Assembly (NCBI GenBank): GCA_945929875.1
Contig: CAMEOO010000009.1
Location: 1 to 36,356 of the forward strand
Reading direction: 5' to 3'
DNA length: 36,356 bases
From: an uncultured Caryophanales bacterium
Lineage (GTDB): Bacteria > Bacillota_I > Bacilli_A > RFN20 > CAG-449
Under the pieces are notes generated by a model, which saw only the letters and a list, made by a program, of their open reading frames with translations, was not told the origin of the DNA and did no database searches. A program made the translations under genes and the position numbers. This document shows, in pieces, positions 15,097-16,675 of this stretch; position 1 is the stretch's first letter; the number at the start of each line of letters is the position of its first letter.

Positions 15097-15363
15097 ATGC
15101 TATGGAGAAAACGTTAAAAAGATATTATAGCTTGGATTTATAATGAGAAAAAAGAATTATTAGTAACTGGTGCTAGAACAATTGGTAAAACATATTTGAT
15201 TAAGAAAACATTAGAACAAGAAAATTGTGATTTCGTTGAATTTAATCTAATTAAACAACCTGAAACAGTTAAGCTTTTAGAATCTGTTTCTAATGATGAT
15301 TGTAAAACATTTTTAGAATGTTTAATATTAATGATTATTACATTCTGTGAAATAAATATGTAA
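15097..15363 (+). pseudogene. Relic of an AAA_14/DUF4143-type ATPase (first copy)
   Basis: With GGAGATGAT upstream, ATG 15097 opens a frame reading MLWRKR, then a TAA at 15115-15117, then KDIIAWIYNEKKELLVTGAR and IGKTYLIKKTLEQ. The GARxxGKTY block is the Walker A of the AAA_14/DUF4143 ATPases, of which only the first quarter remains; the frame stops at 15363. It is dead twice over, by a nonsense codon and by truncation. These ATPases are widespread in gut bacteria and their role is not settled. The N-terminal layout matches the second relic at 15491, so both came from the same family but not from a recent duplication. Confidence 0.7.
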
Positions 15364-15398
15364 ATAATATTATTATAATAAATAAAAAAACCTTTGAT

Positions 15399-15446
15399 GT
15401 TGGAAAAACGCAACAAAACGGCGTTAAATAGGTTGGAAAAATGCAA
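15399..15446. repeat. Second 15-bp direct repeat pair, 33-bp period
   Basis: GTTGGAAAAACGCAA (15399-15413) and GTTGGAAAAATGCAA (15432-15446), one mismatch, again 33 bp apart and again just before an ATPase relic. They share the core TTGRAAAAA with the pair at 15017-15064. Confidence 0.7.
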
Positions 15447-15490
15447 TTTAAGTGTTGTAATATGGATGTAAAGTTGAAGAAGTGATTTTT

Positions 15491-15795
15491 GTGCTAAAAA
15501 GAAAAACTTATAATTCTATAATAAAGTGGCATAATCAAAATTTAAAAAATGTCTTTTAGTAGATGGAGCAAGACAAATGGGCAAAACATATATCATGAGA
15601 AAATTTTTAGAAGAAAACTCAAAGTCTTTTGTGGAATTTCATTTCTGTGATGATAATTTAACTAAAAAGGCATTCGTAAAAGAACTAAGAACCTTACTAT
15701 GCGTAGGGTCCTTTTTTGTTGTCCATATGACGAACAATGTCAAAACGGCATATTATGTGATTATTGACAAGCCAAAATGGCTTAAACTGTGTTGA
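15491..15795 (+). pseudogene. Relic of an AAA_14/DUF4143-type ATPase (second copy, frameshifted)
   Basis: GTG 15491 opens LKRKTYNSIIKWHNQNLK. At the A6 tract (15544-15549) the frame breaks: adding one base restores CLLVDGARQMGKTYIMRKFL and the following SFVEFHF. Family similarity ends near 15690, where a terminator-like hairpin (15689-15717) interrupts it; the remaining codons to 15795 look unrelated. It is therefore a frameshifted, truncated relic. It shares with the first relic the plan MLxRK, W, LLVxGARxxGKTY, FVEF. The open part from 15577 should not be read as a real small gene. Confidence 0.7.
15689..15717 (+). terminator. Terminator-like hairpin inside the second ATPase relic
   Basis: GAACCTTAC (15689-15697) pairs with GTAGGGTCC (15703-15711) with one mismatch and one wobble, followed by six T. 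It may have arrived with whatever truncated the relic, and it insulates the toxin-antitoxin promoter downstream. Confidence 0.55.
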
Positions 15796-15820
15796 CACGT
15801 GTGCCATTAAGGGCTATAAT
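15792..15820 (+). promoter_or_regulatory. Perfect consensus sigma-A promoter of the mntA-hepT pair
   Basis: TTGACA (15792-15797), 17-nt spacer, TATAAT (15815-15820). The palindrome ACACGTGT (15795-15802) overlaps the -35, and the inverted repeat AAGCCA/TGGCTT (15769-15783) lies just upstream; both are candidate operators for the HTH domain of the antitoxin. Confidence 0.85.
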
Positions 15821-15837
15821 TAAAATGGGTGGAAGAA

Positions 15838-16314
15838 ATGAATTTGAAAGAATATAGAATTTCATTAGGAATAACAATTAAAGAAGCTTCAAATGCTACA
15901 GGTGTAGCATTAAGAACATACAATAGGTATGAACATGATGATAATTATGGAGATCCTTTAAAAAGAGCAAGTATTTTAAGTATTTTAAAGGAAAAATATG
16001 AAGTTACTGAAGAAAAAGGATTACTGACTATTGAATTAATAAAAGAACATGTGACTGATATTTTAAACAAATACAAAGAGAAAATTGATTTTTGTTATTT
16101 ATTTGGAAGCTATTCAAAAGGATATGCTAAGGAAAATAGTGATGTTGATTTATGTGTTTCTACTACATTGACTGGGTTAAATTTCATAGGTTTAATAGAA
16201 GAACTTCGTCAATCTTTACGTAAAAGAATTGATTTGATTAGATTATCTGATTTAAAGAATAATATTGAACTTTTAAATGAAATAATGAAGGATGGAATTA
16301 AGATTTATGGATAA
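15838..16314 (+). CDS. mntA: HTH-MntA fusion: nucleotidyltransferase antitoxin (type VII)
   Basis: Residues about 1-60 look like a helix-turn-helix (ITIKEASNATGVALRTYNRYE). The C-terminal part is a minimal nucleotidyltransferase with the exact GSX10DXD motif: GSYSKGYAKENSDVD, preceded by FCYLF. MntA enzymes neutralise the HEPN toxin HepT by adding AMP units to a tyrosine. Here a DNA-binding domain is fused on, so one protein could both modify the toxin and repress the operon. ATG 15838 with GGGTGG fits better than GTG 15829, and the leader would be only about 10 nt. It overlaps hepT by 8 nt. Confidence 0.85.
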   Translation: MNLKEYRISLGITIKEASNATGVALRTYNRYEHDDNYGDPLKRASILSILKEKYEVTEEKGLLTIELIKEHVTDILNKYKEKIDFCYLFGSYSKGYAKENSDVDLCVSTTLTGLNFIGLIEELRQSLRKRIDLIRLSDLKNNIELLNEIMKDGIKIYG

Positions 16315-16675
16315 CAAGAAAAATGATAAATATTATGTAGAAAAAATCTTGGAAAATGTTAATTTCATAATCAAATATACGAAAAATATATCATATGAAG
16401 AATATATTAATGACGAATTATTGATAGATGCTTCTATGTTTAGACTGATACAAATTGCAGAAAATATAAAGGGACTATCTGAAGATTATAAGAAAACTCA
16501 TGCGTCTATTCCTTGGGGATTAATATTAGGTTTTAGAAATGGGATAGTGCATGATTATGGTAAAACAGATTATTCGATAGTATATGAAATAATAAGTGAT
16601 GATATACATAAATTAAAGAATGAATTGGAAAATGATGAGTATTATGAGCCATTACTTTTAGATGAAGAAGGATAG
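16307..16675 (+). CDS. hepT: HepT-like HEPN toxin (DUF86)
   Basis: An all-helical HEPN protein of 122 residues, expected to be an RNase that halts growth when free. It has the full RX4HXY signature (RNGIVHDY near residue 80), in which Arg and His are catalytic and Tyr is the site that MntA adenylylates. DASMFRLIQIAENIK is the typical first DUF86 helix. ATG 16307 overlaps the mntA stop in ATGGATAA, giving translational coupling; the ATG at 16292 has poor spacing. All key residues are present, so the pair looks intact although the genes around it are decayed. Confidence 0.87.
   Translation: MDNKKNDKYYVEKILENVNFIIKYTKNISYEEYINDELLIDASMFRLIQIAENIKGLSEDYKKTHASIPWGLILGFRNGIVHDYGKTDYSIVYEIISDDIHKLKNELENDEYYEPLLLDEEG

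What the first reader, a model, noticed from the sequence alone, without database searches (positions are those of the whole stretch)
15792..16675. HTH-fused MntA with HepT: a type VII toxin-antitoxin pair that could self-regulate transcription
The antitoxin joins an HTH-like domain to an exact GSX10DXD nucleotidyltransferase; the toxin has the full RX4HXY motif. The promoter is perfect consensus (TTGACA, 17, TATAAT), the leader only about 10 nt, and palindromes lie on and beside the -35. One protein could thus both modify the toxin and repress its promoter, a combination not described in the MntA/HepT pairs I know.
Basis: partly seen in the sequence, partly recalled or inferred. Interest (0 to 1): 0.62.

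Follow-up and report, generated by a model that had tools for sequence, protein, structure and literature searches.

The report
Toxin antidote carrying its own repressor
A gut bacterium carries a toxin-antidote gene pair whose antidote enzyme is fused to a DNA-binding domain, and comparison of about 150 relatives shows that this domain almost certainly reads a row of three matching sites at the pair's own start point, so the antidote probably also switches its own genes down.

Summary
MntA (ATG 15838-16314) is an Xre-type HTH (PF01381) joined to a minimal nucleotidyltransferase with GSX10DXD. HepT (16307-16675) overlaps it by 8 nt and carries RX4HXY. The promoter is 12/12 consensus. The real operator is not the palindrome on the -35. 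It is three 6-3-6 inverted repeats exactly 32 bp apart (15737-15751, 15769-15783, 15801-15815), the last wedged between -35 and -10. The array recurs in 61 of 99 homologous promoters above the 99% level of shuffles. The pattern shared by the first two sites occurs nowhere else in the 1.5-Mb genome. Two HTH helix-3 residues (29, 30) predict two operator bases: a rule written down before new genomes were fetched was right in 46/50 cases for each base. An MntA that both modifies HepT and represses its promoter is not new: Shewanella SO_3165, without an HTH, does both (PMC4621449, PMC7641770). What I did not find published is the dedicated Xre domain, its three-site operator and the recognition code. 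The fusion is common (111/279 genomes of the order). Toxicity, AMP transfer and DNA binding are untested here.

The parts
15737..15751 (.). Operator O1, ATGTCAAAACGGCAT (6-3-6 inverted repeat, centre -94 from ATG)
   Evidence: Array score 21.4 against a shuffle maximum of 12.1; same position and spacing in homologues
15769..15783 (.). Operator O2, AAGCCAAAATGGCTT (perfect 6-bp arms, 3-nt centre, -62 from ATG)
   Evidence: the pattern NGYCAAAAYGGCN occurs only at O1 and O2 in the whole 1.5-Mb genome
15792..15797 (+). -35 TTGACA
15801..15815 (.). Operator O3, GTGCCATTAAGGGCT: conserved left half-site inside the -35/-10 spacer, right half degenerate and running into the -10
   Evidence: 32 bp from O2; O3 lies 3-5 nt after the -35 in 46 of 61 homologous promoters
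15815..15820 (+). -10 TATAAT
15838..16314 (+). MntA-like antitoxin, 158 aa: Xre HTH (residues about 1-55) plus minimal nucleotidyltransferase (about 62-158, GSX10DXD at 90-104)
   Evidence: Pfam HTH_3, Polbeta, NTP_transf_2 above gathering scores; AlphaFold2 model; Foldseek to MNT structures 8xeh and 7bxo; profile to PezA, MqsA and HipB HTH domains
15910..15936 (+). HTH helix 3 (residues 25-33, LRTYNRYEH); residues N29 and R30 covary with operator bases 2 and 5
16307..16675 (+). HepT-like HEPN toxin, 122 aa, RNGIVHDY; start overlaps the mntA stop by 8 nt (ATGGATAA)
   Evidence: PF01934 HepT-like E 4e-19; motif RX4HXY; overlap seen in most homologues

Best explanation
This is a chromosomal type VII (HepT/MntA) toxin-antitoxin operon in a Bacilli genome. 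The antitoxin has two jobs. Its C-terminal nucleotidyltransferase transfers AMP to the tyrosine of the HepT RX4HXY motif and so switches off the HepT RNase (inferred from motifs and homology). Its N-terminal Xre HTH, acting as a dimer on each 6-3-6 palindrome, binds O1, O2 and O3. The three sites lie on one face of the helix at 32-bp (about three-turn) intervals. O3 fills the -35/-10 spacer, so occupancy excludes RNA polymerase and represses the operon. Specificity is set mainly by residue 29 (half-site base 2) and residue 30 (half-site base 5). HepT, which in a known relative binds MntA in a hetero-octamer, probably tunes this binding, as toxins do in other modules (inferred). The circuit appears dedicated: O1 and O2 are the only matches to their shared pattern in the genome.
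For: HTH and nucleotidyltransferase domains; HepT with intact motif. Operator: 68 of 98 promoters hold an exact inverted repeat against 12.8 in shuffles; self-repeat at lags 31/32/33 in 16/43/13 promoters against 0.0. Three-site score: 61 of 99 above the 99% null, 57 above the null maximum, window 21.4, against 4.5% of control windows. Residue 29 against base 2: Q-C 6/6, R-G 7/7, F-A 2/2, others-T 38/39. Residue 30 against base 5: R-C 31/31, N/K/E/D/T-A 22/22. Pre-stated rule on new homologues: 46/50 and 46/50 right, permutation maxima 29 and 39. Partial Mantel with the nucleotidyltransferase domain held constant: r 0.43. Solved relative: MqsA uses N97 and R101 of its HTH on TAACCT-N3-AGGTTA (PMC4901048); its SRYE aligns with NRYE here, so R101 corresponds to R30, and base 5 is C there too. 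In L001 the toxin gene is degenerate and DXD has become DVE, while HTH and operators remain.
Against: No binding, repression, toxicity or AMP-transfer experiment exists for this pair. Both proteins score below the NCBIfam MntA and HepT equivalog cut-offs (52.9 and 36.9 against 60). The covariation rests on few independent switches on the tree (3 supported pairs for R29/G2, 1 each for Q29/C2 and R30/C5), although every one goes the expected way. About 38 of 99 homologues, including a tryptophan-31 clade with other repeats and others with no detected array, lack this exact layout. O3 in the window is only half conserved. Repression rather than activation is inferred from site position.
Confidence: 0.8

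Rival explanations
1. The HTH binds the array, but mainly as an activator or as a docking platform for HepT, not as a repressor.
For: O1 and O2 lie upstream of the -35, where activators often sit; the direction of regulation was not measured.
Against: O3 lies in the -35/-10 spacer at a fixed place in most homologues; the promoter has 12/12 consensus and hardly needs activation; Xre-type antitoxins such as MqsA repress (PMC5422877).
Confidence: 0.08
2. The operator belongs to a separate host regulator, and the covariation with MntA helix 3 is shared ancestry.
For: Few independent switches on the tree.
Against: The pattern occurs only at this promoter in the genome; the partial correlation remains after correcting for the nucleotidyltransferase domain; the highest mutual information falls exactly on helix-3 residues 29 and 30; the pre-stated prediction held in 46/50 new promoters for each base.
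Confidence: 0.05
3. The pair is a decaying relic or an antibiotic-type nucleotidyltransferase, not a working toxin-antitoxin module.
For: Toxin gene lost or broken in some relatives; flanking DNA holds ATPase gene remnants; motifs alone do not prove activity.
Against: Both reading frames and both catalytic motifs are intact here, and 74 of 99 homologues keep a HepT with RX4HXY; overlapping genes in the antitoxin-first order; best structural matches are MNT antitoxins.
Confidence: 0.07

Closest known systems
HepT/MntA of Shewanella oneidensis (SO_3166/SO_3165), type VII toxin-antitoxin
   Same: Antitoxin-first overlapping pair, GSX10DXD and RX4HXY motifs, same folds; SO_3165 also binds its own promoter, which has palindromes near -10 and -35 (PMC4621449, PMC7641770).
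   Different: SO_3165 has no recognised DNA-binding domain and two dissimilar palindromes; here a dedicated Xre domain with three matching 6-3-6 sites at 32-bp spacing. Similarity to 5yep is low and covers the nucleotidyltransferase part only (E 7.6e-6).
MqsA (type II antitoxin, Xre-like HTH)
   Same: Related HTH; Arg101 corresponds to Arg30; operator of 6-3-6 form with C at half-site base 5.
   Different: MqsA carries the HTH behind an N-terminal zinc domain (from general knowledge), is a type II antitoxin and has no nucleotidyltransferase.
Legionella pneumophila HEPN-MNT
   Same: Closest solved MNT by sequence profile and by fold (8xeh).
   Different: The matched chain covers only the nucleotidyltransferase part; that paper mentions neither HTH, DNA binding nor autoregulation (PMC11586414).
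Xress-MNTss of Streptococcus suis
   Same: An Xre protein and an MNT protein in one autoregulated pair (PMC8406773 abstract and title).
   Different: Separate proteins, with MNT named as the toxin; not a fused two-domain antitoxin.

Membership tests
Type VII HepT/MntA toxin-antitoxin | GSX10DXD nucleotidyltransferase (CL0260) antitoxin | tested here: met
   GSYSKGYAKENSDVD; Polbeta and NTP_transf_2 above gathering scores
Type VII HepT/MntA toxin-antitoxin | RX4HXY HEPN toxin (PF01934) encoded next to it | tested here: met
   RNGIVHDY; PF01934 E 4e-19; genes overlap by 8 nt
Type VII HepT/MntA toxin-antitoxin | NCBIfam equivalog cut-offs NF047752 and NF047751 (an annotation threshold, not part of the published definition) | tested here: not met
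   52.9 and 36.9 bits against 60: best-matching models but below cut-off, so a divergent subfamily. The published criteria (motif pair in neighbouring genes, PMC7641770) are met
Type VII HepT/MntA toxin-antitoxin | HepT is a toxic RNase | not testable with these tools
   needs an expression assay
Type VII HepT/MntA toxin-antitoxin | MntA adenylylates the HepT tyrosine and neutralises it | not testable with these tools
   needs an in vitro AMP-transfer and rescue assay
Xre/HTH_3 autorepressor antitoxins | HTH_3 fold | tested here: met
   PF01381 above gathering score; AlphaFold2 helices; profile matches PezA, MqsA, HipB
Xre/HTH_3 autorepressor antitoxins | Palindromic operator over the own promoter, matched to the recognition helix | tested here: met
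Xre/HTH_3 autorepressor antitoxins | Binding and repression shown | not testable with these tools
   needs EMSA and reporter assay

The most novel reading that the evidence does not exclude
Bacilli hold a large subclass of type VII toxin-antitoxin modules in which the AMP-transferring antitoxin carries its own repressor domain and binds a three-site, three-turn-phased array with a readable two-residue, two-base code. Occupancy of the array would report the ratio of antitoxin to (modified) toxin, so that transcription is tied to the AMPylation state of HepT.
Probability: 0.3. Interest if true: 0.75.

Novelty: new variant of a known kind. Interest (0 to 1): 0.55.

Why it matters
[quoted passage not shown] Here regulation and toxin modification sit in separable domains of one protein. 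The two functions can therefore be cut apart and tested, and the operator code gives ready mutants. The natural variation in 32-bp arrays across many species is also a ready data set for Xre specificity.

Tried and rejected
Palindromes on the -35 (GTGTTGACAC, ACACGTGT): not conserved in homologues, rejected as operators. Alternative start codons GTG 15829 and ATG 16292: rejected, since homologues start at MNLKE and MDNxK. A wider regulon: the genome-wide pattern search found no exact site outside this promoter, although degenerate sites were not excluded. Mobility: no hit in 72,556 plasmids, one full-length phage-record match at 43%, five viral-contig loci, so mainly chromosomal. The model of a second MntA-like protein of this genome was of low confidence (pLDDT 54), so a ribbon-helix-helix is not claimed for that protein. 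Independent-pairs tests alone lack power, so an out-of-sample test was used. Literature searches found no report of the fusion, but the library holds only open-licence papers.

Full report
Observation. MntA runs from ATG 15838 to 16314 and HepT from ATG 16307 to 16675, overlapping by 8 nt. Pfam finds HTH_3 (24.9 bits, gathering score 23), Polbeta and NTP_transf_2 in the first and HepT-like PF01934 in the second. Both exact motifs are present. The promoter TTGACA-17-TATAAT is the only exact match in the window, with 0.08 expected. The AlphaFold2 model has mean pLDDT 94, with four N-terminal helices followed by the nucleotidyltransferase fold. Foldseek places the C-terminal part on solved MNT antitoxins (8xeh, 7bxo); none of the significant matches covers both domains. 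A profile of 86 homologues matches the HTH domains of PezA, MqsA and HipB.

How common it is. The window lies in a 1.5-Mb genome; its named relatives are Erysipelotrichaceae, Anaeroplasma and unnamed Bacilli MAGs. The full-length fusion occurs in 62 of 395 genomes sampled from the class at E 1e-15 or better and in 111 of 279 genomes of the order at E 1e-20 or better; a few of these matches are partial or interrupted. Of 99 analysed homologues, 74 have a HepT with RX4HXY directly downstream.

The operator. Sixty-eight of 98 promoters contain an exact inverted repeat against 12.8 in shuffles. Repeat centres cluster at about -94, -62 and -32 from the start codon, and sequences repeat themselves at lags of 31, 32 and 33 bp in 16, 43 and 13 promoters against none in shuffles. 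In the window the sites are ATGTCAAAACGGCAT (15737-15751), AAGCCAAAATGGCTT (15769-15783) and GTGCCATTAAGGGCT (15801-15815), spaced exactly 32 and 32. A three-site score puts 61 of 99 promoters above the 99% level of shuffles, 57 above the shuffle maximum, and the window at 21.4 against 12.1. Control windows from the same loci reach the threshold in 4.5%. O3 begins 3-5 nt after the -35 in 46 of 61 promoters, and the -10 begins 12-14 nt after the start of O3 in 46 of 61, so a protein on O3 would cover the spacer. The pattern shared by O1 and O2 occurs nowhere else in the genome.

The recognition code. The sequence of the array differs between homologues, and it changes with helix 3 of the HTH. 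Residue 29 goes with half-site base 2 (Q-C 6/6, R-G 7/7, F-A 2/2, others-T 38/39). Residue 30 goes with base 5 (R-C 31/31; N, K, E, D, T-A 22/22). Mutual information over residues 20-35 and all six bases is highest at exactly these two combinations. Five promoters with off-register fits were left out of that count. Operator distance correlates with recognition-helix distance after the nucleotidyltransferase domain is held constant (partial r 0.43, p 5e-4). On the tree the independent switches are few, but all go the expected way. I therefore wrote the rule down first, fetched new genomes and tested it on homologues under 90% identical to any used before: 46 of 50 correct for base 2 (permutation mean 19.8, maximum 29) and 46 of 50 for base 5 (mean 28.3, maximum 39). 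The solved relative MqsA fits: Asn97 and Arg101 of its HTH bind TAACCT-N3-AGGTTA (PMC4901048), its SRYE aligns with NRYE here so that Arg101 corresponds to Arg30, and base 5 there is C.

Mechanism. Shown by computation: domain make-up, operator array, and covariation of HTH with operator. Inferred: that MntA binds as dimers; that occupancy represses; that MntA AMPylates the HepT tyrosine and HepT is an RNase (by homology with SO_3166/SO_3165, PMC7641770, where MntA and HepT form a 2:6 hetero-octamer); and that HepT modulates DNA binding. Homologue L001 is informative: its toxin gene is degenerate and DXD has become DVE, yet HTH and operators persist.

Comparison with what is known. It is described: SO_3165 binds its own promoter in EMSA, the promoter is 1.6-fold more active in the deletion strain, and palindromes lie near -10 and -35 (PMC4621449). 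SO_3165 has no predicted DNA-binding domain, and the later paper describes MNT antitoxins as having a nucleotidyltransferase instead of one (PMC7641770). I found no report of an Xre-MntA fusion, its operator or a recognition code in the searchable library; closed papers were not covered. Hence: a new variant of a known kind, common in Bacilli.

Noticed in passing
L047 1376-1828 (-), i.e. G000 contig C2 near 67.9 kb; also L042, L043, L044, L061, L062: A second MntA-like/HEPN pair in the same genome has a different N-terminal extension (MYQFRVKK..., strand-helix-helix in a low-confidence model, weakly ribbon-helix-helix-like) and a palindrome CATATGATATCATATG just upstream of the start, shared by five of the six loci. 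It suggests that MntA antitoxins acquired DNA-binding domains more than once.
   Followed up: partly
L060 (G003 contig C15), ORF starting MNKDSNIIIRID: An MNT protein with an N-terminal RelB-type ribbon-helix-helix (PF04221, E 9e-6, above gathering score) followed by a HEPN gene with RNFLVHQY: another possible self-regulating type VII arrangement.
   Followed up: partly
window 15130-15700 (+): Two broken remnants resembling the ATP-binding part of AAA_14-type ATPases (LLVTGARTIGKTYLIKK..., LLVDGARQMGKTYIMRK...) sit between rpsR and the toxin-antitoxin pair; the intergenic region looks like an insertion and decay site.
   Followed up: partly
L001 4001-4474 and downstream: A 73%-identical homologue has a degenerate HepT gene and a changed catalytic motif (DVE) but keeps the HTH and operators: a possible orphan repressor.
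   Followed up: partly
L102, L109, L110, L113, L115, L117: A clade with NWEQE in helix 3 has a different layout: two TACCCCAATGGGGTA-type repeats 31 bp apart.
   Followed up: no
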